Positions 3,530 through 62,820 of a DNA stretch of 64,000 bases are shown in pieces. A model generated the notes under the pieces. That model had not been told where the DNA came from, ran no database searches, and worked only from the letters and a program-made list of their open reading frames with translations. This DNA comes from Bedellia somnulentella. Its lineage: Eukaryota > Arthropoda > Insecta > Lepidoptera > Bedelliidae. The position numbers and the translations under genes are program-made. The stretch is from the NCBI GenBank assembly GCA_963576735.1, contig OY755198.1, forward strand, positions 9,410,535 to 9,474,534, given 5' to 3'. The first letter of the stretch is position 1; each line of letters opens with the position of its first letter.

Positions 3530-3560
3530 ATGAGTTTTAGTACAGCCTTTTGCTTATTAG
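3530..3560 (+). CDS. Gene 1 exon 1 (signal peptide start)
   Basis: Ten codons plus one base (MSFSTAFCLL), ending G|GTAAGT. It is too short for routine gene finders. The choice is supported by the upstream TATA box and by the same layout in genes 2 and 3. Confidence 0.75.
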
Positions 3561-6500
3561 GTAAGTTTTAAGGATTTCATTTCACTTTCTTTTATATACT
3601 CACGGCTATAAATCACATAAAGGGTAGCCAGAGCTTTTCAAGCAAGAAACTCCTCAGCTACATTTGGAAGTTGATAGGGGAGAAGATGGTAGAAATACAA
3701 CCGTGATAGCCCAGTGGGTAGAACACTCGGTTATCGTGCAAACGACTAGTGTTCAAATCCTGGGTCGGGCCTACACCAATTTGTCTTTTCTAAAGACATA
3801 TGTGTGGTTAATTTATCATGGTTGTTAACGGTGAGGAAAAACATCGTGAGGAAACCCACATGGCTGAGTTGTACTTAGTCATGTGACAGTGTATTCGTAC
3901 AAAACAGCGATAGGCCTGCCCCCTATCACGTGAGTACACTGTCAATGCAAAACGTGGGTACTCTGAACACCAGGTGACAAAGTCACGTGATCCCTCGGGT
4001 CCCTTCGGGGATATTCGGAGTGAACGTTTTTGTCATGTTTATGTATGATATGGTAGAAATAAAGTATCGTTGGTGATGGAACTCCTACTCCATACCCTTT
4101 AGTTGCCTTCTACGACCCCCTCGGTAGAAATTTTAAGCTTAAATTTTATTGTCGCCTCTCACGATCACCCACGGGTAGAAATGGGGTAGTGTTATTCTAA
4201 GCCGACACTACACGGCAATTTTATTTAATATCTAATTTATCTGATAATCTTGAACCCAGTAAAATTAGCAAGCGACTAAGGGTATAGGGGCTTTTTAAGT
4301 GATTTTTGGGCGATGTGGTTGGAGACCCGTCACCAAATCTTACCATATTACCATCTTTTCCCCACTCAACTTCCCAAAGTGGCTGAGGAATTCCTAATTC
4401 CTTAGCTCTGGCTACCCCGTTAAGGGATTTATAGCCGTGAGTATATGTATCTATGTATTTTCTTGTATCTGCTCACATCCCGAAAACGGGTAGCCAGAGC
4501 TGCATAAAACTTATTGCTTTGCTACTTTCGAAAGTTGAATGGGGAAAGCTGCTAAAATAAATAATGGTTAGTGGTGATGATTTATCACGGTTATTAAAGG
4601 TAAGGGAAAACATCGTGAGGAAACCCACATGGCTGTTGTACTTGTATCTAGGTATCATAACTTATTTTTAATAGTGCTTATGCTGTGTAGTGTCGGCTTA
4701 GAATAGCACTACCCCGTTTCTGTACGTAAGAGGCGACTAAGGGTATTGGGGATTTTTAATGGATTTTTGGGCGATGCGGTTGGAGACCCACCACCAACAA
4801 CCTTTATTTTACCATCTTTTCCCCAATCAACTTTTTAAACGTGGCTGAGTAATTTATAATTCCTTTGCTATGGTTACCCCTTCTAGGGAATTACAGCCGT
4901 GAGTATATGTATGTATGTAAAATACCAATTCGCGATAGAAGACAATTAATTTACTCGAAGATGACTCATTATTTATCTTATAGAAATCAAGATGTGTCTT
5001 TTGTCAATATAATAGTAATCAATCAATGGCTTTTATGTTAAATACAGAATAGGACATAAAAATTCTAGTGGTCGCTTAGCGCGTTCAACGGATGACATTT
5101 TTCGCGAGAAAGAGGAACTTTCGTTCGCTTGAGCTCTAATAACACCTCACCTACACATTATTACAGTAAATTGTCTGTCCTTTAAAGCTTAATGATAGAT
5201 AGATAGATAACTCGTTTATTTATGGTAACATAACACCATACGATGGAAGAAACAATACATAAAGTGAAAAAATATATATTATTTACGTAAAAATTAGTGC
5301 TATGGTAACACAAACTAGGTCCTTACTCAGCGCTTGATATTTCCAAGTGGCAAAATACTGGTTTTCAGTTAAGGCCTACACTGAACTACACAGTCTCCAA
5401 TCATAAACAAATAAACAAAAAATCTGTGTCTGCCATATTTGAAGTAAAATAAAATAAATAAAGGAAAAGACAGAAAACTAAATAAAAACAATAGTGACTC
5501 AAAATTATTCCTTCAGATTGATGGATGAGGGTCAAATCTCCTTCATTCAGAAAGATTTGCTGCACTGATTTTCCAAATTCGAAGGCAGAGTATTGCAGTG
5601 TTTCATATCTCTCGGTTTTGTTCATCCTTGATCCAAAATATGTCTTATAAAAATCTATACATACATAAACTCTATTGACTATTGATCGCCACTTGGTACG
5701 ATCCTGACAAACCTCTCTAGCTTTCTTTACATCCATCAATCTTCATACATGCTCTTTTATTCTTCATACCTCGGACGCCTGCCTGTTTAAGCAAAAATCT
5801 AGAATACCAGCGTTATAACGTCGCTTCTTCGAAACAGTCTGACAATCCTGTTTTATGTAGATATACAATAAAACCGACAAAGACAGAAAACGGGATGTTA
5901 ACACTTAATGTCAATGCATTTATTAAACAACACAAAATTCACAAAAAAATAATTTGAATAAATTTGAATGTATTTGTTTATGAAAACCTCATGTGGGGAT
6001 TATTACTAATAAATAAAGGAAAGAAAAACTCTACTTAAAAGTGTAAAAGAAACAAAGGATAGAAGAATTTCGCGCTGGCAGCCATTGACTCGGTAGCTCA
6101 ATTGGCAGAGCGACGGGGGCGTATACCCGAGGTCGCGGGTTCGATTCCCGCTTGTGTCGAAATTTTTCTTTCCTTTATTTATTCTTTACGTTAATAAAGT
6201 TACATTTCAATAAAAAAATATAAATTCAGTTTACATTTGCGGGTATTTTTGCTTTATGTCTTTGTGTACACCCTTCAAGTTTTACAGGGTGGTTCAATCC
6301 AATCATTTTGCTCTACTTTGAAAATAAACAACTAAATAGTTATCTTCAGATAGTATTATATCAAGATTAAAGTGAGTTTCTTTTGTTTCAGTGTTAGCAA
6401 CATCATCAATAGCTGCTCCTTTATGTTTGCCATGCCCCTCACCTAGTCCCTTGCCATGTCCAGCCCCTTGCCCGGCCCCTTGCCCGTCCCCTTGCCCTGC

Positions 6501-9500
6501 CCCTTGTGGTTGCGGGGGAGGTTGCGGCCCAGTTGTCTTATGCGGTAGTGGTGGCGGCGGAGGTGGATGTGGTGGTGGTTGTGGAGGTTGTAGATGTGGA
6601 GGTGGTTGCGGTGGAGGGTGTGGAGGTGGTTGCGGTGGAGGGTGTGGGGGTGGTTGCGGCGGTGGAGGTTGTAGATGTGGAGGTGGTTGCGGTGGCGGTT
6701 GCGGCGGTGGTTGTGGAGGCGGTTGCGGCGGAGGTTGCGGTGGAGGTTGTGGGGGTGGTTGCGGCGGTGGTTGTGGAGGCTGTGGAGGTGGCGGTTGTGG
6801 AGGTGGATGTGGAGGTTGTGGAGGTGGATGTGGTGGTTGTGGTGGAGGATGCGGCGGTGGAGGTTGTGGAGGTGGATGCGGTGGTGGTTGCGGTGGTGGT
6901 TGTCGTCGTATTATCATATGTGGCGGCGGCGGTGGCGGTTGTGGAGGCGGTTGTGGAGGCGGCTGTGGAGGTGGATGCGGAGGTGGTTGCGGTGGTGGTG
7001 AGTTTTAATAAATAAAAATTTAACTAGATAACATGTCAATTAACAAAAATCTTTATATTACGAAGAAAATAGTTTTTTGGAAAATGAATTTTATTGTCTT
7101 ACTAAGTTCAACACTGACTTTGATAAGGTTATTAAAAAGGCCTTAATACCTGCCAACAAATACAAGTAAATAATTACGGATATAGCACATTGCTCAGGTT
7201 ATCCCAGGTAGCCCCTAGAAATTCATCATGAATTGTGTTTCTTCACAATAGTTGCTTGGAAAAACTTAAATCAGAAGCTCTGATTTCCGCTGTTTAGGTT
7301 TTATAGCTGTTAATATATGAATGAATGTTCATAAATTATATCCCAGACTTAAATACCACCAAAATGATTGCGGTATTATTTATTTCTTCAATTCAGAATT
7401 CTATCAAATACCTACTTAATTTGCAATGGAAATTTTGCAAACGAAACAAAGCAACCGTGATAGTCCAGTGGGTAGAACACTCGGTTATCGTGCAAACGAC
7501 TAGTGTTCAAATCCTGGGTCGGACCTACACCAATTCGTCTTATCTAGAGACATATGTGTGGTTAATTTATCATGGTTGTTAACGGTGAGGGAAAACATCG
7601 TGAGGAAACCCACATGGCTGAGTTGTACTTAGTCATGTGACAGTGTATTCGTACAAAACGGCGATAGGCCTGCCCCCTATCACGTGAGTACACTGTCTTA
7701 GCAAAACGTGGGTACCTTCTCTGGACACTAGATGGCGCTGCCATGTGAGTGCAGAAGTATTGGTACCTCTGCCAACCCCTTCGGGGATAAACGGCGTTAA
7801 CGTTTATGTTTATGTTTACGTTTATGTTATGAATATTTACAAATTATATCCCAGACTTATATACCACCAAAATGATTGCGGTATTATTTATTTCTTCAAT
7901 TCAGAATTCTATCAAATACCTACTTAATTTGCAATTGAAATTTTGCAAACGAAACAAAATTAAATTGCAAACAAAATTTCAGTATTTGTGAAAAATCCTA
8001 ATTTACAATGAAATTATTCTACCACATTCATATTTATGTTCTCGTTATTTTAAAGCTTGTATTTTTATACATGCAAACGCACGGCACACGCATATTTTAA
8101 TTGGTAACGTACAAAATAATCTAGTGTAGTCACACAGCATAATACATTATTGGTATTTTTAACAGGTTGCGGGCGATTAATAGGCTGCGGTGGAGGTTGC
8201 GGTGGAGGCTGCGGTGGAGGCTGCGGTGGAGGCTGCGGAGGTGGATGCGGTGGAGGTTGCGGTGGTGGCTGCGGAGGCTGTGGAGGCTGTGGAGGTGGCT
8301 GCAGTGGTGGTTGTGGAGGAGGCTGCGGTGGAGGTTGTGGCGGTGGAGGTTGTGGCGGTGGATGCGGAGGATGTGGTGGTGGATGCGGAGGTGGGTGCGG
8401 AGGCTGTGGAGGTGGTTGCGGTGGAGTTTGCGGCGGTGGATGTGGAGGCTGTGGCGGTGGTGGTAAGACATTTGGATTTATCAATTCTTAATTAACGACT
8501 TCAAATAAAAAAAATAAAGAAATATATGTTATTCTTCAGATGTGTATACGAATAAAACATAACATAACATAAACGTTCACGCCGAATATCCCCGAAGGGG
8601 TTGGCAGAGGTACTAATACTTCTGAACATCACGTGACTTTGTCACCTGGTGTTCAGAGTACCCACGTTTTGCATGGACAGTGTACTCACGTGATAGGGGG
8701 CAGGCCTATCGCCGTTTTGTACGAATACACTGTCACATGACTAAGTACAACTCAGTCATGTGGGTTTCCTTACGATGTTTTCCCTCACCGTTTACAACCA
8801 TGATAAATTAACCACACATATGTCTATAGAAAAGACAAATTGGTGTAGGCCCGACTCAGGATTTGAACACTAGTCGTTTGCACGATAACCGAGTGTTCTA
8901 CCCACTGGGCTATCACGGTTGAATAAAACATGTGTTCTTTAAACGATTTGATACGAAGCTCTTCTTACTAAATGTTTTAGGAATAATAAAATAAAATAAG
9001 TGAGGATGTTTATTTAGGAGGAAATTACAGTGGTTACTTAAGGTTTTGAAAACTGCAGCGAGGTTGTCGTTATTGTGAAAGTTGCAATATACGCTCTGGG
9101 GTGGGTTTCTATGTTTTTCTACTCAAAAGTATTTAATAATATGTACTTACATACATATACTCACGGCTATATTTCCCTAGAAGGGGTAGCCAGAGCTAAG
9201 GAATTATAAATTCCTCAGCCACTTTTGGAAGTTGAGTGGGGAAAAGATGGTAAAAATAAAGGTTTTTGGTGATGGGTCTCCAACCGCATCGCCCAAAAAT
9301 CCAATAAAATGCCCCAATACCCTTAGTCGCATCTTACGACACCCGTGGGTAGAAAGGGGTAGCGACATTCTAAGCCGGCACTACACGGCAATATGTACTT
9401 AGATAACATGTATTCATATCCAAACATATCCATGCATATATTCGAACATATCCATTATGACTTAATATCACTGAAGACTTACTTTCACATATATTTATTG

Positions 9501-11694
9501 GTAAACTGCTAACGTCAAAAGATGCAAGTCTCTCCACGATGTTTTCCGTCAGGTTATTAATATTCCACAAAAAGACTTGAGGAAATAATAGATGGTTTAA
9601 AATAACTTGTGTTTTAATAGGAAGTGGTGGCTGCGGGGGGGGTTGCGGAGGAGGCTGCGGGGGAGGTTGCGGTGGAGGTAATAACAATTGCATTGGTTGT
9701 CAGATAAAAAAAACAATTATGAGATTTTAAAATTTACTTAAAATAACAATGACAAAGAGAGTTATAAAATCGCTAGCTAGTTCATTATTTTGATTGTTAA
9801 TACCAAAAGCTTTAGGTCGCTTAATAACCAGACAGTGTTACATCGTCTATTGGTAAAATGTCCCAATGATAAATTATATTATTCACAATAGCTATTTACA
9901 TACTATTTAATACCTTATTTTGTACTTGTGCGATTTTTAATTGCACTGCCACGATTCCCCAGATTCATACATATATATTCTCACGCCCTTAAGTTCCATT
10001 GGGATAGGCAGAGACTATCGATCGCCACTTTGTACGATCCTGGCAAACCTCTCTAGCTTCATTCACATCTATTAATCTTTTCATACATGCTCTTTTATTC
10101 TTCTTACTTCGGACACTGTGACACGCTGTGTAGTGTCGGCTTAGAATAACACCATCCCATTTCTTCCGGTGGGTGTACGTAAGAGGCGACTAACGGTATT
10201 GGGGCGGTTGGAAACCCATCACCAACAACCTTTATTCCAGCATCTTTTCCCAACGCAACTTCCAAAAGTGGCTGAGGAATTTCTGATTCCCTAGCTCTGG
10301 CTACCCCTTCAAGGGATTCATAGCCGTGAGTATATGTAGTATATGTATGTATGTACTTCGGACTCCTGCCTTTTTGAGCACATTTTCTGTTTGAACCCCA
10401 GATTCACATTTGTAGTTTTTGCTATAATGTAGATATTGCAAAGCCTATTTTATTTAAATAACCCCTTTAAAGTCCAACTACAACAAGTCAAAATGGAGTA
10501 GTGCTATTTTAAGTAGACATTACACAACAAAATTAAATGGTGTTATATTTAATTGATCAAATTATTTTGTATCAATATGTTTATTAGATTTAGACTATGA
10601 TTATGTTTGATTGGGTCCTTAATATCAATTATTATATCATTAGCCTTAAAAATATTGCTGTGTAGTGTCGGCTCAGAATAACACTACCCCATTTCTACCC
10701 GTGGGTGATCGTAAGAGGCGACTTAGGGTATTAGGGCTTTTCAAGTGATTTTTGGGCGATGTGGTTGGAGACCCGTCACCAAAAACATTTATTATTACCA
10801 TCTTTTCCCCACTCAACTTCCAAAAGTGGCTGAGGAATTTCTCATTCCAAAGCTCTGGCTACCCCGTTTAGGCAATTATAGCCGTGAGTATATGTATGTA
10901 GCCTTAAAAATATGATCTGAAATTTCTTCGATGTATGATTCCGTAGGCCCACCATATTAATATTTGAATTATGTAGATGATATAACAACTTTATTGTGGG
11001 AGCTCTCAGAACAATGTTACATATATTTTGTGTTTCAACAGGTTGCGTACGACTGATTGGCGGAGGCGGTTGCGGTGGTTGTGGAGGCGGTTGCGGTGGA
11101 TGCGGAGGTGGTTGCGGTGGTGGTTGCGGAGGTGGTTGCGGTGGTTGCGGTGGATGCGGAGGTGGTTGCGGTGGTTGCGGCGGTGGTTGTGGAGGAGGCT
11201 GCGGCGGAGGTGGTTGCGGTGGATGCGGAGGTGGTTGCGGCGGTTGCGGCGGTGGTTGTGGAGGAGGTTGCGGCGGAGGTGGTTGCGGTGGATGCGGAAG
11301 TGGTTGCGGTGGTTGCGGCGGTGGTTGTGGAGGAGGTTGCGGCGGTGGTTGTGGAGGAGGTTGCGGCGGAGGTGGTTGCGGTGGATGCGGAGGTGGTTGC
11401 GGCGGTTGCGGCGGTGGTTGCGTTGGTTGTGGAGGAGGTTGCGGCGGAGGTGGTTGCGGTGGATGCGGAGGAGGTTGCGGAGGAGGTTGTGGAGGAGGTT
11501 GCGGAGGTGGTTGCGGAGGTGGTTGCGGTGGTTGCGGAGGTGGCTGCGGAGGTTGCGGAGGTGGTTGCGGAGGTGGCTGCGGAGGTGGCTGTGGAGGTTG
11601 CGGAGGTGGCTGCGGAGGTGGTTGCGGAGGTGGCTGCGGAGGTTGCCGGGTAAGCTGCGGCGGCTGTGGCTGTTCCTGCCCTTGCTTTTGCTAA
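3530..11694 (+). CDS. Gene 1: secreted Cys-Gly-rich structural protein (5 exons)
   Basis: Spliced from 3530-3560, 6392-6997, 8166-8462, 9621-9677 and 11042-11694 (1644 nt, 547 aa). All four introns are GT-AG and phase 1. Residues 1-19 form a signal peptide (MSFSTAFCLL then VLATSSIAA). A Cys-Pro block follows (residues ~20-50, repeated PCPAPC / PCPSPC) and then long CGGG arrays to the end, interrupted by GCGRLIGCGG and GCVRLIGGGG where exons 3 and 5 begin. The C-terminus is CGGCGCSCPCFC. Regular Cys spacing with Gly suggests a disulphide- or dityrosine-free glycine-loop network in an extracellular matrix; no catalytic motif is present. Composition resembles high-cysteine chorion proteins, but the gene is not part of a divergent A/B pair and I see no chorion central domain. 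The gene model is inferred from the sequence alone. Confidence 0.78.
3593..4217 (-). mobile_element. SINE-A copy split by a SINE-C insertion
   Basis: The outer - strand SINE-A occupies 3593-3697 and 4050-4217. It lies in intron 1 of gene 1. Confidence 0.8.
3698..4049 (+). mobile_element. SINE-C copy nested in SINE-A
   Basis: Full-length copy with a 12 bp target duplication ATGGTAGAAATA at 3686-3697 and 4050-4061. Both arms belong to the interrupted SINE-A, which fixes the order of insertion. Confidence 0.88.
4268..4456 (+). mobile_element. SINE-A copy, 5'-truncated
   Basis: Starts inside the element at GCGACTAAGGGTAT and keeps the 3' end and tail. Confidence 0.75.
4469..4650. mobile_element. 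SINE-A fragment (-) followed by SINE-C core fragment (+)
   Basis: 4469-4577 is a diverged - strand SINE-A end. 4579-4650 holds only the SINE-C core around GGGAAAACATCGTGAGGAAA. Confidence 0.6.
4682..4918 (+). mobile_element. SINE-A copy, full length
   Basis: 5' GCTGTGTAGTGTCGG to a short TATG tail. 4920-5190 shows nothing recognisable. Confidence 0.82.
5191..5500 (-). mobile_element. LINE 3' UTR fragment (undisturbed paralogue of the BEL target)
   Basis: Begins on the - strand side with a (TATC)n-type tail (GATAGATAGATAGATAAC as read on +) and contains CAGTTAAGGCCTACACTGAA once. The same sequence at 19022-19221 plus 25646-25740 is split by the BEL element, so this copy serves as an empty-site reference. 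Confidence 0.75.
5659..5785 (-). mobile_element. RTE-type LINE 3' fragment
   Basis: Reverse strand encodes pieces of the KRACMKRLMDV / CQDRTKWRSIV tail found in the longer copy at 26565-27715. Confidence 0.65.
5975..6185 (+). repeat. tRNA-like repeat cassette, copy 1
   Basis: 6087-6158 resembles a tRNA (TAGCTCAATTGGCAGAGC D arm; GCGGGTTCGATTCCCGC T arm), but the acceptor stem has a mismatch and the anticodon loop is one base too long. Flanks AGAATTTCGCGCTGGCAGCC and TTTTTCTTTCCTTTATTTATT recur at 58140-58285, so it is a dispersed repeat. The AACCTCATGTGGGGATTATT lead is shared with 28130, 38045 and 57671. Confidence 0.65.
6392..6997 (+). CDS. Gene 1 exon 2 (signal peptide end, Cys-Pro block, Cys-Gly array)
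   Basis: 606 nt after TTTTGTTTCAG; completes the signal peptide, then LCLPCPSPSPLPCPAPC and CGGG arrays with two RCGGGC variants. I end it at G|GTGAGT (phase 1). Without splicing the frame would stop two codons later (EF stop at 7006), so the exact end depends on that donor being used. Confidence 0.75.
7333..7450 (+). repeat. 118 bp direct duplication, left copy
   Basis: Matches 7841-7958 with only two mismatches and flanks the SINE-C copy between them. This looks like an unusually long target-site duplication. Confidence 0.85.
7451..7840 (+). mobile_element. SINE-C copy between 118 bp duplications
   Basis: Full length, with a variant 3' half (GGACACTAGATGGCGCTGCC) shared with copies at 34233 and 57739, and an irregular TTTATG tail. 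It lies in intron 2 of gene 1. Confidence 0.88.
7841..7958 (+). repeat. 118 bp direct duplication, right copy
   Basis: Partner of 7333-7450. 7959-8165 is the rest of intron 2, with a polypyrimidine-poor but plausible TTTTTAACAG acceptor. Confidence 0.85.
8166..8462 (+). CDS. Gene 1 exon 3 (Cys-Gly array)
   Basis: 297 nt, phase 1 at both ends (TTTTTAACAG acceptor, G|GTAAGA donor). Starts GCGRLIGCGGGC and then is almost pure CGGG / CGGC. Gene 2 exon 4 has the same length, 297 nt. Confidence 0.75.
8561..8920 (-). mobile_element. SINE-C copy, full length
   Basis: Flanked by GAATAAAACAT at 8550-8560 and 8921-8931. It lies in intron 3 of gene 1. Confidence 0.88.
9150..9390 (-). mobile_element. 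SINE-A copy, full length
   Basis: Flanked by ATATGTACTTA at about 9139-9149 and 9391-9401. The 5' end is of the GCCGTGTAGTGCCGGC type. Confidence 0.85.
9621..9677 (+). CDS. Gene 1 exon 4 (57 nt micro-exon)
   Basis: Encodes GSGGCGGGCGGGCGGGCGG between a TTTTAATAG acceptor and a G|GTAATA donor, both phase 1. It adds 19 residues of array and could be skipped without a frameshift. It is too short for the reading frame alone to prove it. Confidence 0.6.
9965..10395 (-). mobile_element. RTE-type LINE 3' fragment split by SINE-A
   Basis: The - strand LINE tail occupies 9965-10114 and resumes at 10354-10395, interrupted by the SINE-A copy. Confidence 0.7.
10115..10353 (+). mobile_element. SINE-A copy inserted in LINE
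   Basis: 10 bp target duplication TACTTCGGAC at 10105-10114 and 10354-10363. Ten extra bases precede the usual GCTGTGTAG start. Confidence 0.86.
10656..10898 (+). mobile_element. SINE-A copy with 15 bp target duplication
   Basis: TAGCCTTAAAAATAT at 10641-10655 and 10899-10913. This is one of the clearest proofs that SINE-A moves by retroposition. Located in intron 4 of gene 1. Confidence 0.9.
11042..11694 (+). CDS. Gene 1 exon 5 (long Cys-Gly array and C-terminus)
   Basis: Starts after GTTTCAACAG and ends in TAA at 11692-11694. Encodes GCVRLIGGGGCGG, about 190 residues of CGGG/CGGC/CGGGG array and a distinct end (RVSCGGCGCSCPCFC). Inside the array a ~69 bp higher-order unit, GGTTGCGGTGGATGCGG..., recurs around 11221, 11290, 11383 and 11461. 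No AATAAA is seen to 12000; TATAAA variants occur. Confidence 0.82.
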
Positions 11695-14965: not shown

Positions 14966-15475
14966 TTAATTGACATGTTTAATGTTCCTGAAGACCACAA
15001 TTGTGTTCGAGAGGCTGGTAGGTTTAGCCTTGTTTCGGTTTAGTTCTCTTGTCGTATATAGTACAGGATGGTTTCTGACTAGTTTGCAAAGTTCTAATAT
15101 ATACAAAGATGGCAAGGTAAGTATTTTATAATTTTTAAAATGCATTTTACATGAGTCGGTTTTACATATATTTGCAATGATCCTAATTAGTTTTTTCTGT
15201 GCTGTAAATAGTGTACTAGCATCAGAACTATTCCCCCACAGTATCACTCCATAGCTGAGCCATGAGTGCGCATAAGCGTAATAGGTTGCTAGTGCAGTTT
15301 TAGTGTCTGTTGTTTTTTTAATTTCATAAAGTGCGTAAGTAAACTTAGATAATTTTATTCTTATAGTTTGGACATGCGACTTCCAATTAACATGTTTATC
15401 AATTTTAATACCAAGGAGGGAAAATTCGTTCACGGTTTCTATTTTAATATTGTTAAATTCTAGGTCAACTTGCAA
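14966..15475 (-). pseudogene. LINE reverse transcriptase, C-terminal part
   Basis: 169 residues continuing the reverse transcriptase after a frameshift near 15465. Contains LGIKIDKHVNWKSHV and SYGVILWGNSSD, typical of the region after the catalytic core in Jockey/CR1-type elements. Inactive as it stands. Confidence 0.75.
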
Positions 15476-42972: not shown

Positions 42973-43079
42973 GTGTCTTTTAATCAAGTGTGACTTATCA
43001 TGTCAGATATAGATCATAGTTATAGTATATATAGTGAGGACATCTTCAGATCTGAATACAGAACCTTTCGAGTTCAACC
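42973..43079 (+). promoter_or_regulatory. Core promoter and 5' UTR of gene 2
   Basis: TATATATAG at 43026-43034 and TCAGA initiator-like at 43046. GTGTCTT (42973-42979) and GTGACTTATCA (42990-43000) include a GATA-type TTATCA and recur in the same order upstream of gene 3. The start context is TTCAACCATGG. Confidence 0.6.
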
Positions 43080-43113
43080 ATGGCTCGTTTAAGCAAAGCC
43101 ATTGTTTTTTTAG
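43080..43113 (+). CDS. Gene 2 exon 1 (signal peptide start)
   Basis: Eleven codons plus one base, ending G|GTAAGT. Joining to exon 2 gives a textbook signal peptide, strong support for this tiny exon. Confidence 0.82.
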
Positions 43114-49100: not shown

Positions 49101-52100
49101 TTTTGTCCAATTCTAACGCCCAGTTCCTGAATTGAGTATTCCAGCTGAACACAACTTAAGTATCGTTCTGTCGCATTGAAATCTTAACAACTGAATGAGA
49201 CAAAACGATACTAAAGTTGTTCTCTTCTAAAAGTTGTTCTTGAATACTCAATTCAAAAATCGGGCGTTAATAGTTAAATTTCGTTTTCGTATTTTATAAA
49301 ATCAATAAATTGTTACCCTGAACTCTCTTTTTTATACAATTACAAATAAGAAGTGAAAGAGAATAACTACTAAATGAATGAGAATAATACTAAGAGAATT
49401 ACTAAATGATACAAAATATACTACACCCTAAACTTTTTCAAAAACTATTGCGAGCACTTGTTGAGGGTTTGAGTTCGGGGTTGTAAGAGGTACTCAATAC
49501 TCAATAGATGTATTGCGTTCCACAATGCTTTTCTTAGATGGTAAGTATGTAATTATGTTACAGCATTGTGGACCCTGTTGGGCACAGCAATTAGAGGAGA
49601 GGACGAAGTAATTATAATTTATCATTGAGATATTCACTTAGACTATAATAGCATTTATTTATTAGTAGCTCCTTAAGATTTTTTTTAGAAATTAGCGATA
49701 GTGGCTTCCTCTCTTAGAGGTTTTGGCAGTTTACTATAGATATTTATGTGATGATGTTATTCGTGAAAGGTGTGGTGTAAAAGATGATATTGTAAGAAAG
49801 ATAGAAAAAGGAATGTTGAGATGGTTTGGGCACATAGAGAGGATGGATGACAGTAAATTGGTGAAAGAGATATCATGAATGTCAAAACTGGTGTTCGTAT
49901 TATGTAAATAAAAATAACCTGACAGAGTAATGTAAAGTGACTGACTGTCAAACAACGCAAAGACGGCTACTGGTCGTAGAAAGTAAAAAATTACATACAT
50001 ACATACATATACTCACGGCTATAAATCCCTAGAAGGGGTAGCCAGAGCTAAGGAATTAGAAATCCCTCAGCCATTTTTGGACGTTGCGTGGGGAAAAGGT
50101 GGTAAAAATAAAGGTTGTTGGTGATGGGTCTCCAACCGCATCGCCCAATAATCCCTTAAAATGCCCCAATACCGTTAGTCGCCTCTTACGTACACCCACC
50201 GGAAGACATGGGGTAGTGCTATTCTAAGCCGACACTACACAGCTAAAAAAATATCTATTAAAAAATTATTATGCATTATGTAGTTGTACTTAGTCATGTG
50301 ATAGTATATTCGTACAAAAACTTCGATAGGCCTGCCCCCTATCACGTGAGTACATTGTCTAAACAAAACGTTGGTACTTACCAGGCGACAATGTCAAGTG
50401 ATGCTGAGAAGTATAAGTATATCTGTGAACCCCGTCGGGGTTATACGGCATGTTCTGTGCTTAAGAACTGAGAAAACTTTTCTCAAAATCTTCATGGAAA
50501 CGGAAATAAAAGAAATGTAAAGGTATAATAACTGCAACTTCATGCCGTACTTATTTATGCGAAAATGGACGCCATTTGGTTGTTTTCGCGCATTTTGTAA
50601 GATCAACACTGTTATTTTTTGTAAACTGTATCTTTTCCTTGACTTATTTTGTAAAAATATTTACATATTCGTATGAATTTGGCAACAAATAATATTTTTT
50701 TTTCTTCTTCTTCATATTTTTTATATAATTAGTATACGGATTTCGATTGGTGTATTGCCGGCTTAGAATGTCACTACCCCTTTCTTCCCACGGGTGTCGT
50801 AAGAGGTGATTAAGGGTATTGGGGCTTTTTAATGGATTTTTGAGCGATGCGGTTGGAGACCCATCACCTTTATTATATGCCATCCGTTCCCCACTTAACT
50901 TCCAAAAGTGGCTTAGGAATTTCTACGGGTACCCCTTCTAGGGATTTATAGCCGTGAGTATATGAATGAATGAATTTATGATTTCTATATGTCATGGTTG
51001 CTTACAGAACCTGCCTGTCAATGTCAACCAATGATGGTGCAAGAGAGCTGTGATTACGGATTTGGTGGAGGTTGCGGAGGATGCAGTTGCGGAGGTGGAG
51101 GTGGCTGTGTAGTTCCACTTGTGATTTGTTGCTGCTGTGAAAACGGCGGTGGTTGCGCAAGTGGTAGTGGAGGAGGTTGCAGTTGTGGTTGCGGAGGAGG
51201 TTGCATTAGTGGTTGCGGAGGAGGTTGCAGTGGCGGTTGCGCATGTGGTTGCGGAGGAGGTTGCACTGGAGGTTGCGGTTGTGGTTGCGGAGGAGGCTGT
51301 ATTGGTAAGTAATCATTCTTAATATATTTTTACTTTTTAATACAAGAATTTGGTATGCTGACACTACTAGTAGAACAGATTTATTACAAATGTAGATATC
51401 AAGATAGAAATGTAAGGCTATTTTCATCCTAGCAAAAACAAAGATGTTATTTAAGTTATTTTTATAAGAAAGGTGTTTGTATCTATCTATCGTACCCCAC
51501 TGATAAAGTCATAGACATTTTGAAAAGGAAATTTATGATGATGGGCAATGATTTAAACAAAAATGGTTAAACTAATGTTTTAAGTATACAGGAATAAAAA
51601 GAAAAGCTAAAACAAAAAATAAAAATATAAAAATAACAATTCGCATATACATACATACATACATAGATATACTCACGGCTATAAATCCCTAGAAGGGGTA
51701 GTCAGAGCTAAGGAATTAGAAATTCCTCAGTCACTTTTGGAAGTTGCGTGGGGAAAAGATGGTAAAATAAAGGTTGTTGGTGACGGGTCTCCAACCGCAT
51801 CGCCCAAAAATCCCTTAGAAAGCCCCAATACCGTTAGTCACCTCTTACGTACACCCACCGGAAGAAATGGGGTAGTGTTATTCTAAGCCGACACTACACA
51901 GCCCAATATACATTATCTAACAGTCACTTATAAACCCCTAAATCTTAAATGACTCATCAATGAATTTTAACTGTTTCTATTATCTTTTGCAGGATGTTCT
52001 GCACAACCCGTATGCGTACAATTAACCGGCGGTTGCGGCAGTAGTAGCAGCGGTGGTTGCGCATGTGGTTGCAGTGGTGGTTGCGGAGGAGGTTGCAGCG

Positions 52101-52210
52101 GTGGTTGCGGAGGAGGTTGTGGAGGAAGTTGCAGTGGAGGTTGCGGAGGAGGTTGCAGCGGTTGTTGCTGCCCATGCCAAATGATATGTTGCGCCCCACG
52201 TGGCTGTTAA
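43080..52210 (+). CDS. Gene 2: secreted Cys-Pro/Cys-Gly structural protein (5 exons)
   Basis: Spliced from 43080-43113, 45374-46828, 48214-48294, 51008-51304 and 51993-52210 (2085 nt, 694 aa); all introns GT-AG and phase 1. Residues 1-20 are a signal peptide (MARLSKAIVFL then ALISSLIAA). Then a CPxPC block (~21-58), a Cys-Gly region (~59-150), a 20-residue Pro/Cys/Gln repeat domain (~155-445), a linker with MEMIFVNEGCGG, a duplicated EAVCQCQPIIVQENCDY module encoded by exons 3 and 4, further Cys-Gly arrays, and the end CCCPCQMICCAPRGC. No enzyme motif. Probably an extracellular, disulphide-rich structural protein. The gene is about 31 kb downstream of gene 1 and 5 kb upstream of gene 3. Confidence 0.8.
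43170..43408 (-). mobile_element. SINE-A copy, diverged
   Basis: In intron 1 of gene 2. Confidence 0.75.
43459..44410 (-). mobile_element. Non-autonomous Helitron
   Basis: On the - strand starts TCTATACTTATAATAAATCT (44410) and ends CGTGCGAAGCTGGGACGATCCACTAG (43459), with the hairpin before CTAG. 952 bp. Includes a (CAGA)n microsatellite at about 44262-44290. Related copy at 13689. Confidence 0.8.
44464..44825 (+). mobile_element. SINE-C copy, GACGTAATAGCTC subtype
   Basis: Full length, same subtype as 12103. 44826-45048 has nothing recognised. Confidence 0.85.
45049..45298 (+). mobile_element. SINE-A copy
   Basis: GCCATGTAGTGCCGGC subtype; ends 75 bp before exon 2 of gene 2. Confidence 0.83.
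45374..46828 (+). CDS. Gene 2 exon 2 (signal end, Cys-Pro block, 60 bp repeats)
   Basis: 1455 nt after TTTTTTTTTCAG. Encodes ALISSLIAAPCPPPCPSPC, a Cys-Gly region, then about 13 units of a 60 bp repeat (45901-46680; consensus IPCPAPMPQPCPIPAPSIMQ), then GGGSMEMIFVNEGCGGNCQ and EQCNCGGCCN. The donor is G|GTAAGT. Confidence 0.85.
45901..46680 (+). repeat. 60 bp coding tandem repeat in gene 2
   Basis: Units end in CCTGTCCT every 60 bp. The first half is diverged (PCPCIMPCPCP forms). The last six (46321-46680) are almost identical and alternate CACCAATG / CACCCATG, a 120 bp dimer pattern. Confidence 0.9.
47237..47590 (+). mobile_element. SINE-C copy, full length
   Basis: 13 bp perfect target duplication TTATATAAAATTG at 47224-47236 and 47591-47603. 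Confidence 0.92.
47972..48173 (+). mobile_element. Short non-autonomous Helitron
   Basis: Starts TCGATATATATAAAAGAAAG, ends GCGAATCCGGGGCGGACCACTAG, inserted between A and T. 202 bp. It ends 40 bp before gene 2 exon 3. Confidence 0.75.
48214..48294 (+). CDS. Gene 2 exon 3 (CQCQP module, first copy)
   Basis: 81 nt, phase 1 at both ends (TCGTTTCAG, G|GTAAGC). Encodes EAVCQCQPIIVQENCDYRGG and CCGCCCN. Its first 17 residues match the start of exon 4 at 13 positions, so one was copied from the other. Confidence 0.78.
48295..48937. other. Intron 3, first part: no gene recognised
   Basis: A 98-codon frame at 48555-48851 has no recognisable domain. TTGGCCACATC.TGA occurs twice (near 48455 and 48879). 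Confidence 0.4.
48938..49113 (-). mobile_element. RTE-type LINE 3' fragment
   Basis: Encodes AGVRNMKNKKACMKRLMDVN and the CQDRTKWQSLVSAYP end on the - strand. Interrupted by the following MITE. Confidence 0.7.
49114..49269. mobile_element. Palindromic MITE with TA ends
   Basis: TAACGCCC...GGGCGTTA with inner inverted AATTGAGTATTC.AGCTGA and AAGTATCGTT. TA ends suggest Tc1/mariner mobilisation. Same family at 56935-57180. 49270-49740 shows nothing else. Confidence 0.75.
49741..49877 (+). mobile_element. RTE-type LINE internal fragment
   Basis: Relics of IRERCGVKDDIVRKIEKGML and RWFGHIERMDDSKLVKEI. Confidence 0.7.
49993..50243 (-). mobile_element. SINE-A copy, full length
   Basis: (CATA)n tail; TAAAAAA on both sides may be the target duplication. 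Confidence 0.85.
50280..50452 (+). mobile_element. SINE-C 3' half
   Basis: 5'-truncated, diverged. Confidence 0.65.
50749..50975 (+). mobile_element. SINE-A copy next to a splice acceptor
   Basis: Ends only 32 bp before gene 2 exon 4, so it supplies part of the intron end where a branch point would lie. Confidence 0.8.
51008..51304 (+). CDS. Gene 2 exon 4 (CQCQP module, second copy, plus Cys-Gly array)
   Basis: 297 nt, phase 1 at both ends (GCTTACAG, G|GTAAGT). Encodes EPACQCQPMMVQESCDYGFG, VVPLVICCCCENGGG and a Cys-Gly array with CSCGCGGGC and CACGCGGGC variants. Confidence 0.82.
51649..51901 (-). mobile_element. SINE-A copy, full length
   Basis: In intron 4 of gene 2. Confidence 0.85.
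51993..52210 (+). CDS. Gene 2 exon 5 (C-terminus)
   Basis: After ATCTTTTGCAG. Encodes GCSAQPVCVQLTGGCGSSSS, Cys-Gly array and SGCCCPCQMICCAPRGC, then TAA. Confidence 0.82.
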
Positions 52211-57180: not shown

Positions 57181-57512
57181 ATGCTTTCCGCAACTCCCGA
57201 AAGCACGCGGTGAGATTTACATATATCAAATTTTTATCTACTTTTCAAAATATAACGTCGAGTAAAAGTGGTTTTAACTGAAAAATATTATGAAAGAAAT
57301 CAAAGCATAACTTCCTTCCGGCAATAGACGATTTGAATTTGCCTATAATTAAAATACTTCCAACTTTCTCCTTATCACACCGTCTCGTCGCATCAAATAT
57401 TATTTCAACAAAATACCACACCTGAAAACTGCTATGTTTAAAACGTTCAAAACTGATAAAACAGCTCATATTTCGGCGAATTTAATTTGATATTTAAAAA
57501 CGAAATAACTGA

Positions 57513-57613
57513 GTGTCTTAAACTGTGACTTGTTATTTTAGAGATAGGATTTTTAATCGTATATATACTGTGGAGCTTTTTGGAGAACGTACAGAGAGCT
57601 GGATAGTTCAACA
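57513..57613 (+). promoter_or_regulatory. Core promoter and 5' UTR of gene 3
   Basis: TATATATA at 57560-57567, AGATAG (GATA-type) at 57542-57547, GTGTCTT (57513-57519) and GTGACTTGTTA (57525-57535) as in gene 2. The start context is TTCAACAATGG. 57181-57512 has no other feature. Confidence 0.6.
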
Positions 57614-57644
57614 ATGGCTACAAGCACAGTTTTCATAGTTTTTG
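57614..57644 (+). CDS. Gene 3 exon 1 (signal peptide start)
   Basis: MATSTVFIVF plus one base, G|GTAAGT donor. Confidence 0.8.
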
Positions 57645-60600
57645 GTAAGTTTTGAATATAATTTGAATCTTTTTGTTCATGAAAACCTCATGCGGATATT
57701 ATTACTAATAAATAAAGTGAAAAGAGTGAAGTGTAAAGAGCGACATGATAGTCCAGTGGGTAGAACACCCGCTCGAAAACAGAAGGGCGTGAGTTCCAAT
57801 CCTGGGTCGGGCCTACACCAATTTGTCTTTTCTAAAGTCATATGTGTGGTTAATTTATCATGGTTGTTAACGGTGAGGGAAAACATCGTGAGGAAACCCA
57901 CATGGCTGAGTCGTACTTAATGATGTGACAGTGTATTCGTACAAAACGGCGATAGGCCTGCCCCCTATCACGTGACTACACTGTCTAAGCAAAACGTGGG
58001 TACCTTCTCTGGACACTAGATGGCACTGCCATGTGAGTTCAGAAGTATTGGTACCACTGCCACCCCTTCGGGGATAAACGGCGTGAACGTTTATGTTATG
58101 TTATGTTAAATAAAGAATAAATAAACACACTAATTAAACGTGTAAAAGAAATAAAGGATAGAAGAATTTCGCGCTGGCAGCCATTGACACGGTAGCTCAA
58201 TTGGCAGAGCGACGGGGGCGTATACCCGAGGTCGCGGGTTCGATTCCCGCCTGTGTCGAGATTTTTCTTTCCTTTATTTATTCTTTATTTATAAGTTTTG
58301 AATATTTTTATATTTGGTAGTTTTTGCTGTGTACCGCGTGTCGTAATAAATATGGAGCTTTTTGAAGTGGTTTTTGGGCGATGCATGCGGTTGGAAACCC
58401 ACCACTAATGATACTTTTTTTCTAACATCTTGTTCTCTATCAACTGCCAAAAGTGAGTGAGGTGTTTTTAGCTCTGAAGCTCTGGCTACCCCTTTCTGGA
58501 ATTTATATGTATGTGTATGTATATATGTATTTTAGCTAGTAAATTACAAAGTGGTGATGAGACTTCGGTTATCTCAATTGTAATAGCAAAGTATGCATAT
58601 TATAAAAATACCTTAAAATCTAAAGAAGATCACGTTCCGTCAGCCCAACTGAGGGGTTTTAGCCTACCCACGAAGGCCAATTATGACAAATACACATAGT
58701 TCACGTAGTAAAATTTTCTCAAACTAAATAATTTGGGGCTTTTAAAGGTTTTTTGGGCGATGTGGTTGGAGACCCATCACCAACAACCTTTATTTTACCA
58801 TCTTTTCCCCACTTATCTTTCCAAATGTAGGTGAGGAATTTCTAATTCCTTAGCACTGGCTACCCTATCTAGAGATTTATAGTCGCGAGTATATGTATGT
58901 ATGTATTTTTATAAATATACTAATATGCAGCGTGTTACCTCATGTCTGTACATGAGGGAGATGAAACATATTTAAAACTTTTTTTATATCCCTCATTACA
59001 GTTTACCATTTAATTCAACTATTCCATAAATATTTTTTTTATTTAAGCCAGCCTAAATTATGTTTATGCATGAAATTATTTCTGTATTATAATTTTAACA
59101 GGGCAACAGGGGCTTGTTAAGTGATTTTTGGGCGATGTGGTTGGAGACCCGTCACCAAAAACATTTATTTATCTCCATCCATCTTTTTCCCAATCAACTT
59201 CCAAAAGTGGCTGAGGAATTTCTCATTCCAACGCTCTGGCTACCCCGTAAGGGATTTGTAGCCGTGAGTATATGTATGTATGTATGTATTTTTTTGACAA
59301 TTCTGCAATAGTCCCTTATATCACTAAATTTTATTCTCGTATTTTAAATTATTCAAAAATTCAATAAAAAATACACAAAATTAGATGGTTGCCAAACATT
59401 GACTGTTGGAAGCCAAATTTGTCTTGCCCTTTAACCATTGATTGTATTTTTTTACAGCCTTAATCTCATCGTCATTATCTGCACCTTGCTCACCACCATG
59501 TTCTCACCCTTGCTCAGTCATCTCACCTTGTCCTGCACCGTGTCTTGGACCTTTAAGCATTCCTGAATGTTATGGGGGCTTTGGTAAGACCTTAACAAGT
59601 AGTGGAGGTGGTTGCGGTGGAGGACATATCAGCGGCGGATGCGGGGGAGATTGCGGTGGGGGACATATCAGTGCCGGATGCGGGGGAGGTTGCGCTGGAG
59701 GACATATCAGTGGCGGATGCCGGGGAGGTTGTGGAGGACTCTTGATCAGTGAGGGTGGAGGTCGCTGGGGGCAAACCTTTGGTCTCGGATCTGGAACTGG
59801 TTATGGATCTGGTGAAGTTGTATTAGCTGATGGTGGCTGTGGAAGTAACTGTGGAGGATGTGATAGATGTTCTAATGTTCCTGTCTCTAATGCACCTTAT
59901 GGAATCGGCGGCGGTTGTAGCGGTGGTGAAACAATTTTAATCAATAGTGGAAATGTGGGAGGCTGTGGAGGAACCTGCGGAGGTGGCTGCGGAGGAGGTT
60001 GTGGCGGAGGTTCCGGTGAAGTCATTTTGGTAAACGATGGAGGAATTGGAAGTTGCGGCGGATCAAGTGGAGGCTTCGTAGCTCCCGTCAACTTTTTAAC
60101 TTATGGAAGCGGTGGTGGTTACGGAAGTAGCTCTGATGGTGTTGTTTTCGTCAATGAGGCTGTAAATGGAGGAGGCTGCGGCGGACAATATGGTGGAGTT
60201 TCTTATACACCTAGTGGTTACGGCTGTGGAGGCTATAATCCTTACTCTTTTATACCTAGTGGATACAGCGGTGGTTGCGGAGGCAATTATGGATATGGAT
60301 GCGGTAGCGGTTCTGGCTCCGGTGAATACATTTTAATGAATGGTGGTGGAAGAAGCTGTGGAAGTAGCCCTGGTGGTGTAGTCTTCGTGACTGAGGGTGG
60401 AAGTGGAGGCAACTATATAAATGGATGGGGAAGTGGTCCTACCGAATACGTCTTAGTAAATGATGGCGGTAACAGAGGCTGTGGAGGTGGTTATGTAGGA
60501 GGATGTAGTGCTCCAGTTCCTTATATACCTTGTGGTTACGGACACAGTTCTGGTGAAATCCTGTTAACAAATGGCATAAACAATGGTGGATATAGTAGTA

Positions 60601-62820
60601 ACTATGTAGCTCCTAGTTTTGTATCTTATGGGAGCGTTGGTGGTGGATGTGGCAGACACGAAAATATAGTTCTATTAGCCAATGATGGCATCGGAGGTGG
60701 CTATGGATGCGGTAATCAAGGAGTCTACACCAATGGATGCGGAGGAAGTTCAGGCGAAGTCTTGTTAATGAATGGTGGTGAAGGATTCAGCCAAAATGCT
60801 TATGGAGGAAGCTGTGGATACCAACCTGGCTGTGAAACAGTTTACGTTACTCAAGATCTAAGCAGAGGCTACGGAGGAGGTTACAGCAGTGGTTGCGGGG
60901 GAGGTTACAGCAGTGGTTGCGGGGGAGGTTCTGGCGAAGTCGTGTTACTTAATGGTGGTGGTGTTGGAAGCAGCCTAAGTGGTTTTGGAGGTTACCATGG
61001 TGGTTGTGGTCCAGTCTTTTTATCTCAGGTTGGAGGCTCAGTTAACTATGGAAGTGGGTGTGGGGGAGGTTCTGGTGAAGTCGTCTTAGTTAACGGTGGA
61101 AGCGATGGCGGTTGCGGCGGTGGATGTGGAAGTCATCGCGGATATGGCTCTGATGGTGGTTTCTTCGTTAATGAGGGTTATGGACGAAGCGGATTTACTG
61201 GTAAGTTCTCAATAGTATGTCATGATCATTTTTCATGACTATTTAGTTATAAATCAACATAGTTTTAAATACTCAATATTGTAAAAGGATCATAACATAC
61301 ATAAACATAAACGTTCACGCCGAATATCCCCGAAGGGGTTGGCAGAGGTACTAATACTTCTGAACATCACGTGACTTTGTCACCTGGTGTTCAGAGTACC
61401 CACGTTTTGCATGGACAGTGTACTCACGTGATAGGGGGCAGGCCTATCGCCGTTTTGTACGAATACACTGTTACATGACTGAGTACAACTCAGCCATTTA
61501 TTTATTTATTATAAAAACACAATAATGCTTAACAGCTATGGCCAACACGCAATTATTGTTAAGAAGTACAAAAAATATATACAAAATATAATTTAACATT
61601 CACAACAAATACTTAATTAAAATTTTACATTTACAATAAATATAATTAAAATTACACAAAATCAAACAAAAATAAAATACAACAAACATTTAAAAATAAA
61701 CAGAATTAAAATTTAAATAAATTGAGATCATATTAAACAATAAAAAATAACATACTTACTTATATCTAGGAACTAAGTACCACTTTACACAACTTAATAA
61801 GAGAAGGTAACGAATTGTGATGTATGTCGGCATGTGGGTTTCCTCACAATGTTTTCCCTCACCGTTCACAACCATGATAAATTAACCACACATATGTCTT
61901 TAGAAAAGACAAATTGGTGTAGGCCCGACCCGGGATTTGAACACTAGTCGCTTGCACGAGAACCGAGTGTTCTACCCACTGAGCTATCACGGCTAAAAGG
62001 ATCACTCATTTTTAATCCCTGCGACTATAAACACGCCAAATATTTTTTGAATATAATGACTAAGGTGACTTGGAAGGAAACTGTCCAGGAATAAATAAAT
62101 CTTACTTCATAGGATCTTGGTTCCTTGGATCTTGGGACTTGAAAATTAATATTCAAACTAGTTCTCAGTTCAATAAATTTTAATATTGCTCACGTTTTTG
62201 TTGCATCGTCAACGGAAAAAGAAAGAGTCATAATAATTCACGTTCTAATAATTCTCGCAACTAAGCAAAAAACTATTCATTAGTGTTTTATGGAAATCCT
62301 ACTAATGGCAAATGTAAATTTACAAATTGGGTTTTGGCTGAAATTTCATTTTGATTTCTCTTCCCTTACAGAAAGTGTCAAAACACCTATATTACTTCAA
62401 ATGATCGGCGGTGGTGGGGTTGGTTATGGCGGTGGTTGCGGAGTTGGTTACGGCGGAGGTTACGGAACTGGTTGCGGCGTTAGTTACGGTGGTGGTTACG
62501 GCGGTGGTTACGGAGGTAGTTACGGAATAGGTTGTGGTGGTTTGGGCGCTGGCTCTGGCGAAACCATCTTAGTTAATAATGCTGATGGAGGCTGTGGGGG
62601 AGGATCTGGTGGTCTTGTCTTCTTAGCTGACGATGGAAGTACCAGCGGTTTTGGAAGTGGTTGCGGAGGAGGTCATATCTGTGGTTGTGGAGGAGGTCAC
62701 AGTGGCGGTTGCGGAGGAGGTTGTGGTGGTGGTTGCGGACAAGGTTGCGGTGACGGTTGCGGTGGAGGTTGTCAGAGCCCCTGCACATGTCACATAATAA
62801 GTAATGTTCCAAGTTGCTGA
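57614..62820 (+). CDS. Gene 3: secreted Gly-rich protein with GEVVLVN repeats (3 exons)
   Basis: Spliced from 57614-57644, 59458-61200 and 62372-62820 (2223 nt, 740 aa); both introns GT-AG and phase 1. Residues 1-19 are a signal peptide (MATSTVFIVF then ALISSSLSA). A CPxPC block follows (PCSPPCSHPC, SPCPAPC). The body is Gly-rich with Cys, Tyr and Ser and repeats a short hydrophobic strand about every 30-50 residues: GEVVLADGG, GETILINSG, GEVILVNDGG, GEYILMNGGG, GEILLTNG, GEVLLMNGGE, GEVVLLNGGG, GEVVLVNGG, GETILVNNA. It ends CQSPCTCHIISNVPSC. Probably a matrix protein with beta-strand stitches between glycine loops; partner of genes 1 and 2. Confidence 0.82.
57671..58285 (+). repeat. tRNA-like repeat cassette, copy 4, split by SINE-C
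   Basis: The lead AACCTCATGCGGATATTATT (57685) and the tRNA-like unit (58186-58258) sit on either side of the SINE-C copy. Here the acceptor stem pairs (GACACGG with CTGTGTC), but the anticodon stem is only 4 bp with an 8-base loop. Confidence 0.6.
57739..58107 (+). mobile_element. SINE-C copy, GCGACATGATAGTCC subtype
   Basis: Full length with TTATG tail, in intron 1 of gene 3. Confidence 0.87.
58326..58530 (+). mobile_element. SINE-A copy, diverged
   Basis: 5' region partly deleted. Confidence 0.65.
58732..59289 (+). mobile_element. Two 5'-truncated SINE-A copies
   Basis: 58732-58905 and 59101-59289, both starting near GGGGCTT. The space between is AT-rich intron. Confidence 0.7.
59458..61200 (+). 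CDS. Gene 3 exon 2 (signal end, CPxPC block, Gly-rich repeats)
   Basis: 1743 nt after TTTTTTTACAG, donor G|GTAAGT. Near its start four HISGGCGG / HISAGCGG units repeat; later, stretches such as CGGGSGEVVL recur. Confidence 0.87.
61287..61995 (-). mobile_element. SINE-C copy split by a ~335 bp insertion
   Basis: Arms 61287-61496 and 61834-61995. The inserted piece begins (TTTA)n and is AT-rich without a frame, resembling the LINE 3' insertion at 39285. Confidence 0.8.
62372..62820 (+). CDS. Gene 3 exon 3 (C-terminus)
   Basis: After CTTCCCTTACAG. Encodes ESVKTPILLQMIGGGG, YGGGCGVGYGGGYG arrays, AGSGETILVNNADGG, GGLVFLADDGS, CGGGH units and the end QSPCTCHIISNVPSC, stop TGA 62818-62820. Confidence 0.85.

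What the first reader, a model, noticed from the sequence alone, without database searches (positions are those of the whole stretch)
3530..62820. Undescribed cluster of three secreted Cys/Gly/Pro structural-protein genes
Three + strand genes share a tiny signal-peptide exon, a CPxPC block directly after the signal peptide, Cys-Gly arrays and a Cys-rich end. Splicing of each tiny exon to the next restores a perfect signal peptide (MARLSKAIVFL with ALISSLIAA, for example), which random joining would not do. I know of no named family with this layout; it looks like a disulphide-based extracellular material.
Basis: partly seen in the sequence, partly recalled or inferred. Interest (0 to 1): 0.88.

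Follow-up and report, generated by a model that had tools for sequence, protein, structure and literature searches.

The report
Disulphide-rich moth structural protein gene family
This stretch of a moth or butterfly genome carries genes for secreted, cysteine- and glycine-packed proteins that look built to be cross-linked into a tough outside material, and they do not match the known eggshell (chorion) gene family.

Summary
All 10 introns are GT-AG and phase 1. TATAWA sits exactly 54 nt before each ATG. A scan for TATA box, ATG and a GTAAGT donor 28-39 nt on, over 264 kb and both strands, gives 5 sites; 4 are first exons of this family.

The cluster is incomplete as described. An inverted paralogue of gene 3 lies 8 kb beyond the window (85.8% amino-acid identity, dN/dS 0.43); promoter and exons are its conserved blocks. 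Seven open frames with the same N-terminal layout lie 2.8 Mb away on the same contig, one on contig C21.

Chorion membership was tested and not met: no Chorion_1 domain; 14 of 19 Chorion_1 matches lie on contig C20, none on this contig.

Best reading: a lepidopteran multigene family of secreted Cys/Gly/Pro proteins that cure by disulphides into an extracellular material. Tissue is unknown; eggshell is my first guess. No transcript data were available and no relative in another species was found by weak searches, so novelty is provisional.

The parts
3476..3481 (+). g1 TATA box (TATAAA), -54 from ATG
3530..3560 (+). g1 exon 1 (31 nt), first half of signal peptide
6392..6997 (+). g1 exon 2: rest of signal peptide, Cys/Pro block, CGGG arrays
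8166..8462 (+). g1 exon 3: CGGG array, phase 1-1
9621..9677 (+). g1 exon 4: short CGGG exon, phase 1-1
11042..11694 (+). g1 exon 5: CGGG/CGG arrays, Cys-rich end SCPCFC, stop
43026..43031 (+). g2 TATA box, -54 from ATG
43080..43113 (+). g2 exon 1 (34 nt), first half of signal peptide
45374..46828 (+). g2 exon 2: rest of signal peptide, CPPPCPSPC block, Cys-Gly arrays, 20-residue Pro/Cys repeats (IPCPAPMPQPCPIPAPSIMQ)
48214..48294 (+). g2 exon 3: EAVCQCQPIIVQENCDY module, phase 1-1, resembles the start of exon 4
51008..51304 (+). g2 exon 4: EPACQCQPMMVQESCDY module and Cys-Gly arrays, phase 1-1
51993..52210 (+). g2 exon 5: Cys-Gly array, Cys-rich end CAPRGC, stop
57246..57651 (+). g3 promoter plus exon 1, 94.8% identical to the paralogue g4
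57560..57565 (+). g3 TATA box, -54 from ATG
57614..57644 (+). g3 exon 1 (31 nt), first half of signal peptide
59458..61200 (+). g3 exon 2: rest of signal peptide, CSPPC block, Gly-rich part with repeated GEVVLVNGG islands
62372..62820 (+). g3 exon 3: Gly/Tyr and Cys-Gly arrays, end NVPSC, stop

Best explanation
A lepidopteran multigene family of secreted structural proteins. Shown by sequence in g1-g4: TATA promoter, 31-34 nt first exon splitting the signal peptide, then phase-1 exons coding a Cys/Pro block, Gly linkers with cysteines (about every fourth residue in g1), short hydrophobic islands (VVLVN, PIIVQ, RVVS) and a Cys-dense end whose last residue is Cys. Inferred: the proteins are secreted loosely folded, the islands associate as beta-strand stickers, and the cysteines oxidise between chains after secretion, curing the deposit into an insoluble network. 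g1-type proteins (25% Cys) would be the dense cross-linker, g2 a stiffer Pro-rich spacer, g3/g4 the bulk Gly/Ser/Tyr filler. Phase-1 exons let modules duplicate without breaking frame. Tissue: eggshell (follicle cells) is my first guess at about 0.35, because Lepidoptera harden chorion by disulphides and this genome's Chorion_1 genes are Cys-poor (median 3.4%, n=19); cuticle or scale, and silk, glue or spermatophore glands, share most of the rest.
For: Gene models and phases; first-exon and signal-peptide controls; arrays stay open over 146 TG-codons, all TGC or TGT, although 34% of Gly codons there end in A or G (see caveat). g3/g4 pair: 704 aligned codons, pS 0.149, pN 0.068, dN/dS 0.43, Cys in both at 49 of 62 Cys columns; conserved blocks are promoter+exon 1, exon 2, exon 3. 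Family elsewhere: 7 of 8 matches of an N-terminal query lie on C30:6.469-6.593 Mb with open frames of 464-706 aa, one of them the query's own source; 185 CGGGCGGGC matches in the genome, 0 with the reversed pattern; same layout on C21. Last residue Cys in 6 of 6 family 3' ends read: g1-g4 and two in the distant cluster. Disulphide hardening of moth chorion: PMC3011924 and PMC13409908, passages.
Against: No transcript, peptide or tissue datum was available. The query did not recover g1-g4 at E<=1 (12 candidates scored), so the link between the two clusters rests on shared layout. First exons of the distant copies were not found (none convincing in the 1.6 kb upstream in L048; not sought on C21). 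The TGY test is partly the same thing as an open frame: TGA is excluded by that, and TGG alone would be expected only about three times. No AATAAA within 700 nt of the stop of g1 or g2; in g3 only at 597 nt. Structure prediction of g3 exon 2 was uninformative (mean pLDDT 35.4). No relative found in another species. Disulphide state, cross-linking and tissue are inferred from composition. g3 has only 7.8% Cys, so a purely disulphide role fits it less well.
Confidence: 0.7

Rival explanations
1. They are divergent high-cysteine (Hc) chorion genes of the classical silkmoth superfamily that lost the central domain and moved out of the chorion locus.
For: Hc proteins are also Cys-rich and cross-linking, and chorion genes have a minor first exon (PMC4639761 passages).
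Against: No Chorion_1 match for g1, g2 or g3; 14 of 19 Chorion_1 matches on C20, 5 on C1, C156 and C69, none on C30; no divergent A/B pairing; 3-5 exons and 547-740 aa against two exons, the second 300-500 nt; a phase-1 first exon here against apparent phase 0 in three of the genome's chorion loci (tentative, with contrary readings).
Confidence: 0.07
2. Cuticle, scale or seta proteins of the epidermis, hardened by disulphides, an insect analogue of keratin-associated or gecko cornified beta proteins.
For: Glycine-cysteine-rich proteins are named in gecko seta papers (search listing only); Gly-rich secreted proteins with tiny signal-peptide exons are common in insect cuticle (recalled).
Against: Cuticular proteins are usually Cys-poor (recalled); no Pfam family of any kind was found in g1, g2 or g3.
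Confidence: 0.25
3. Silk-gland, colleterial-gland or accessory-gland secretion (glue, cocoon coat, spermatophore wall).
For: Long, repetitive, secreted, multigene; 20-residue Pro/Cys repeats in g2 are in the style of gland secretions (judgement).
Against: No Pfam family in g1, g2 or g3; literature searches on silk and spermatophore showed no such family by titles and abstract starts (one search showed 25 of 102).
Confidence: 0.25
4. Metal-binding (metallothionein-like) or defence proteins rather than a material.
For: Very high Cys content.
Against: Signal peptide, 547-740 aa length, long Gly spacers, Pro repeats and hydrophobic islands fit a matrix better (inference).
Confidence: 0.04
5. Not genes: GC-rich simple repeats that happen to be open.
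For: Array stretches are open in other frames too; Gly-Cys DNA is a near-simple repeat.
Against: Promoter, splice sites, phases, dN/dS 0.43 and exon-shaped conservation with g4.
Confidence: 0.02

Closest known systems
Silkmoth high-cysteine chorion proteins HcA/HcB (Bombyx mori)
   Same: Secreted, Cys-rich, minor signal-peptide exon, multigene, disulphide cross-linking (PMC4639761 and PMC3011924 passages).
   Different: Hc genes are two-exon, mostly divergent A/B pairs in the chorion locus; these have 3-5 exons, 547-740 aa, a Cys/Pro start block, no Chorion_1 match and lie on a contig without Chorion_1 matches.
Keratin-associated proteins and glycine-cysteine-rich cornified beta proteins (vertebrate hair, gecko setae)
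   Same: Cys-Gly-rich, disulphide material (recalled; gecko papers seen as search listing).
   Different: Those are intracellular (recalled); these have signal peptides. Convergent at most.
Cnidarian minicollagens (recalled)
   Same: Pro/Cys-rich secreted disulphide-cured wall proteins.
   Different: No Gly-X-Y collagen triplets seen here; layout differs.
Insect glycine-rich cuticular proteins (CPG; recalled)
   Same: Gly-rich repeats, short first exon.
   Different: Usually Cys-poor; no Cys/Pro block.

Membership tests
Chorion superfamily (PF01723; A, B, Er, Hc) | Chorion_1 central domain | tested here: not met
   0 Pfam families at E<=10 for g1, g2, g3; the same model does find chorion genes in this genome; HMMER's low-complexity correction is a caveat
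Chorion superfamily (PF01723; A, B, Er, Hc) | lies in the chorion locus | tested here: not met
   19 Chorion_1 matches in the own genome (lower bound): 14 on C20, 2 C1, 2 C156, 1 C69, 0 on C30
Chorion superfamily (PF01723; A, B, Er, Hc) | divergently transcribed A/B pair | tested here: not met
   g1, g2, g3 all +, g4 tail-to-tail with g3; most, not all, Bombyx chorion genes are paired
Chorion superfamily (PF01723; A, B, Er, Hc) | two exons, about 50 nt + 300-500 nt | tested here: not met
   3-5 exons; coding 1,644-2,223 nt against the PMC4639761 passage
Chorion superfamily (PF01723; A, B, Er, Hc) | signal-peptide intron of the same phase | tested here: inconclusive
   Here phase 1. Of 19 chorion loci 5 gave any exon-1 candidate (best two shown per locus): L030 51 nt, L039 48 nt, L046 45 nt, all phase 0 with TATA upstream; against that, L039 also gave a 31-nt phase-1 candidate with TATA, scoring higher; L037 a 31-nt phase-1 one and L029 a 21-nt phase-0 and a 25-nt phase-1 one, all without TATA
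High-cysteine chorion (Hc) | high Cys content | tested here: met
   C 24.7, 19.6, 7.8% in g1, g2, g3; the genome's Chorion_1 genes 0.9-5.3%, n=19
High-cysteine chorion (Hc) | late follicular expression | not testable with these tools
   no expression data
This family (LISSS-AAP-CPxPC start), defined here | phase-1 acceptor inside the signal peptide, then Cys/Pro block, then Cys-Gly arrays | tested here: met
   g1-g4, the C30:6469573 copy and the C21 copy; the other six distant N-termini were seen only as search rows
This family (LISSS-AAP-CPxPC start), defined here | last residue Cys | tested here: met
   6 of 6 3' ends read
Insect glycine-rich cuticular proteins | expression in epidermis, cuticle location | not testable with these tools
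   no expression data

The most novel reading that the evidence does not exclude
An undescribed lepidopteran multigene family (at least 12 members by N-terminus in this genome) that invented, independently of the chorion superfamily and outside its locus, a secreted Cys/Gly/Pro material cured by disulphides, built from phase-1 exon modules.
Probability: 0.45. Interest if true: 0.7.

Novelty: new variant of a known kind. Interest (0 to 1): 0.5.

Why it matters
Lepidopteran eggshell, cuticle and silk are model biomaterials, and disulphide curing is known to me mainly from chorion. A second family with up to 25% cysteine, on a contig without Chorion_1 genes, would be a missing structural component somewhere in the animal and a template for a disulphide-cured material. 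The gene models give exact junctions, so RNA-seq can settle tissue and reality directly. It also shows a kind of gene that pipelines could easily miss: 31-nt first exons and low-complexity exons.

Tried and rejected
Protein search with whole g3: the 7,990 candidates sharing most words were scored, none at E<=1e-3. With g2, residues 460-560: 55 candidates, none at E<=10. Control search with a reverse transcriptase from the window: 681 proteins, 120 listed; named Lepidoptera among the 120 are Chilo, Phthorimaea (name cut short) and Manduca, one named row is a fish, most rows carry no organism. So the collection holds some lepidopteran proteins, but the negatives are weak for low-complexity queries. 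Solved structures: three matches to g2 at E<=1 (best E 0.00028, residues 165-237, the Pro-rich part), taken as chance composition. AlphaFold of g3 exon 2 had low confidence; no fold search was run. Simple-repeat artefact rejected. Canonical chorion rejected. No TCACGT hexamer (recalled as a silkmoth chorion promoter element) in 300 nt upstream of g1, g2, g3; GATA words were listed there but not tested against chance. In g2 the nine aligned 20-residue units vary at 6, 7 and 12 of 20 columns by codon position, a mild third-position excess only. Literature: searches showed no paper on such a family by titles and abstract starts; some searches showed 25 of 37, 25 of 102 and 12 of 219. Only passages of PMC4639761, PMC13409908 and PMC3011924 were read. 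A (CG)n pattern search and g3-type protein searches of the own genome did not complete.
Full report
OBSERVATION. With exons g1 3530-3560, 6392-6997, 8166-8462, 9621-9677, 11042-11694; g2 43080-43113, 45374-46828, 48214-48294, 51008-51304, 51993-52210; g3 57614-57644, 59458-61200, 62372-62820, each reads open to a single stop, giving 547, 694 and 740 aa; 10 of 10 introns are GT-AG and interrupt codons after the first base.

CHANCE. (1) Six-frame composition: 13 merged Cys-rich stretches inside the gene spans, all + strand, none in the remaining 41,047 nt. (2) In five arrays 146 of 146 codons beginning TG are TGC or TGT, although Gly codons in the same arrays end in A or G in 127 of 374. This is mostly a statement that the frame stays open, since TGA is a stop and G-ended Gly codons are rare there (7 of 374); I give it modest weight. 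(3) Of 94 phase-1 ATG..GTRAG mini-exons on the + strand of the window, 39 gave an open joined N-terminus for each gene; joined to g1, the true first exons of the three genes are the three most hydrophobic; joined to g2 the true exon is second behind that of g3, joined to g3 it is first. (4) TATAWA stands exactly 54 nt before the ATG in g1, g2 and g3; 5 of 1,181 + strand ATGs in the window have that, these three included. A scan for TATAWA at -64..-45, ATG and GTAAGT 28-39 nt on gives three sites in the window on both strands together, the three genes, and five in 264 kb, four of them family first exons. (5) The mature N-termini (residues 19-62) score above 1000 of 1000 shuffles in each pair; the signal-peptide parts above 982, 1000 and 992 of 1000.

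A FOURTH GENE AND SELECTION. Fetching 100 kb on either side showed a paralogue of g3 on the minus strand 8 kb beyond the window (window-equivalent exons 76150-76120, 74775-73111, 72538-72111; 707 aa, with a one-base correction told under Tried and rejected). Its two introns are phase 1 too. Against g3: 704 aligned codons, 85.8% amino-acid identity, 39 gap columns, pS 0.149, pN 0.068, dN/dS 0.43; of 62 columns with Cys in either, 49 have it in both. A blastn of the two loci printed 16 rows; three are the colinear blocks 57246-57651 (94.8%), 59431-61212 (87.4%) and 62338-62936 (82.1%), that is, promoter plus exon 1, exon 2, exon 3. The other 13 are, by eye, copies of interspersed repeats or repeats inside exon 2; one of them (58733-59096, 71.3%) lies in intron 1 of both and could be a shared remnant. 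This supports the tiny first exon without transcripts. The promoter block is the best conserved.

FAMILY. In the own genome (549 Mb, 486 contigs) DNA for CGGGCGGGC gives 185 matches against 0 for the reversed pattern; overlapping matches count apart. The 100 listed lie on C21 (3) and on C30 at 6.47-6.55 Mb (97); the list appears sorted by contig, so none seems to lie on C1-C20. An N-terminal query from C30:6469573 finds 8 places: 7 on C30:6.469-6.593 Mb (5 +, 2 -; its own source included) with open frames of 464-706 aa and E from 1.9e-27 to 9.3e-9, and a weak one on C24 (E 0.42). It did not recover g1-g4, so the two clusters are joined by layout: the C30:6469573 copy and a C21 copy show the same acceptor phase, a LISSS/VSSS-AAP start, a Cys/Pro block and arrays. 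Their first exons were not identified. Two further 3' ends from the distant cluster end CCQVVCCKPCCC, so 6 of 6 ends read have Cys as last residue. Counting g1-g4, seven N-termini on distant C30 and one on C21 gives at least 12. A possible further relative, an open frame at window-equivalent 150432-154778 with a PCSPCHTPVVPCAQPC start and a final Cys, lacks the phase-1 layout and a convincing exon 1; I do not count it.

HOST. The genome holds 19 Chorion_1 matches, with 0 in 14 control genomes, and named relatives of a window reverse transcriptase include Chilo, Phthorimaea and Manduca. It is lepidopteran; the species is not identified.

MECHANISM. Shown: secretion signal, cysteines in Gly linkers, hydrophobic islands of a like kind in the members read (PVVLC, PIQFVSC, QPIIVQENC, EVVLVNGG, TRVVSC), Cys-dense ends, tandem repeat expansion and a likely duplicated phase-1 exon start (g2 exons 3 and 4 share 39 of 47 nt). 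Inferred: secretion in reduced or loosely folded form, strand-like association of islands, then intermolecular disulphides. The precedent is moth chorion, whose arm cysteines mostly stay reduced during deposition and oxidise at ovulation (PMC3011924, passages). Tissue is open; I put eggshell at 0.35, cuticle or scale 0.25, gland secretions 0.25.

MEMBERSHIP. It may work like high-cysteine chorion but is not a member by the features tested: no Chorion_1 domain, other contig, no A/B pairs, more and longer exons (against PMC4639761 passages). The intron-phase comparison is inconclusive.

NOVELTY. Protein searches and ten paper searches showed no described family. I recall that annotation pipelines name such low-complexity proteins 'chorion class high-cysteine HCB protein 13-like'; a search for that name found one paper, on Bombyx in traditional medicine (listing only). 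So relatives may exist in databases under a misleading name. I rate it a new variant of a known kind.

Noticed in passing
window-equivalent 150432-154778 (C30:9560966-9565312), + strand, L025/L026: A 1,449-codon open frame with Gly/Ser/Tyr repeats (GGGGSTGYLG), a PCSPCHTPVVPCAQPC start behind a phase-0 acceptor and a Cys/Pro-rich end with last residue Cys; no Pfam family above cut-off in the two end pieces sent; no convincing exon 1 in 9 kb.
   Followed up: partly
C30:6.469-6.593 Mb and C21:2.558-2.565 Mb of the own genome: A larger sister cluster of the same layout, with CCTRVVSCGGGC arrays, and a C21 copy.
   Followed up: partly
C20:0.888-1.234 Mb: Apparent chorion locus of this genome, 14 of 19 Chorion_1 matches; all 19 are Cys-poor (0.9-5.3%), no high-cysteine chorion gene among them.
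   Followed up: partly
57246-57651: Promoter plus exon 1 of g3 is more conserved with g4 (94.8%) than exon 2 (87.4%) or exon 3 (82.1%): strong constraint, or recent conversion.
   Followed up: no
15460-16494 and 63113-64000, minus: Reverse transcriptases (RVT_1), non-LTR type by eye.
   Followed up: yes
19770-25187, minus: 1,603-codon open frame plus an upstream one with a weak DUF1759 match below cut-off; looks like a BEL/Pao retroelement (label recalled).
   Followed up: no
28877-29242, minus: Helicase-like fragment, weak Pfam matches below cut-off; Helitron by eye.
   Followed up: no
58185-58259 and about 6085-6160: tRNA-like stretch called by ARAGORN at 58185 only, with a near copy by eye near 6085.
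   Followed up: no
window-equivalent 141089, + strand: The fifth hit of the TATA/ATG/GTAAGT scan, with no gene assigned.
   Followed up: no
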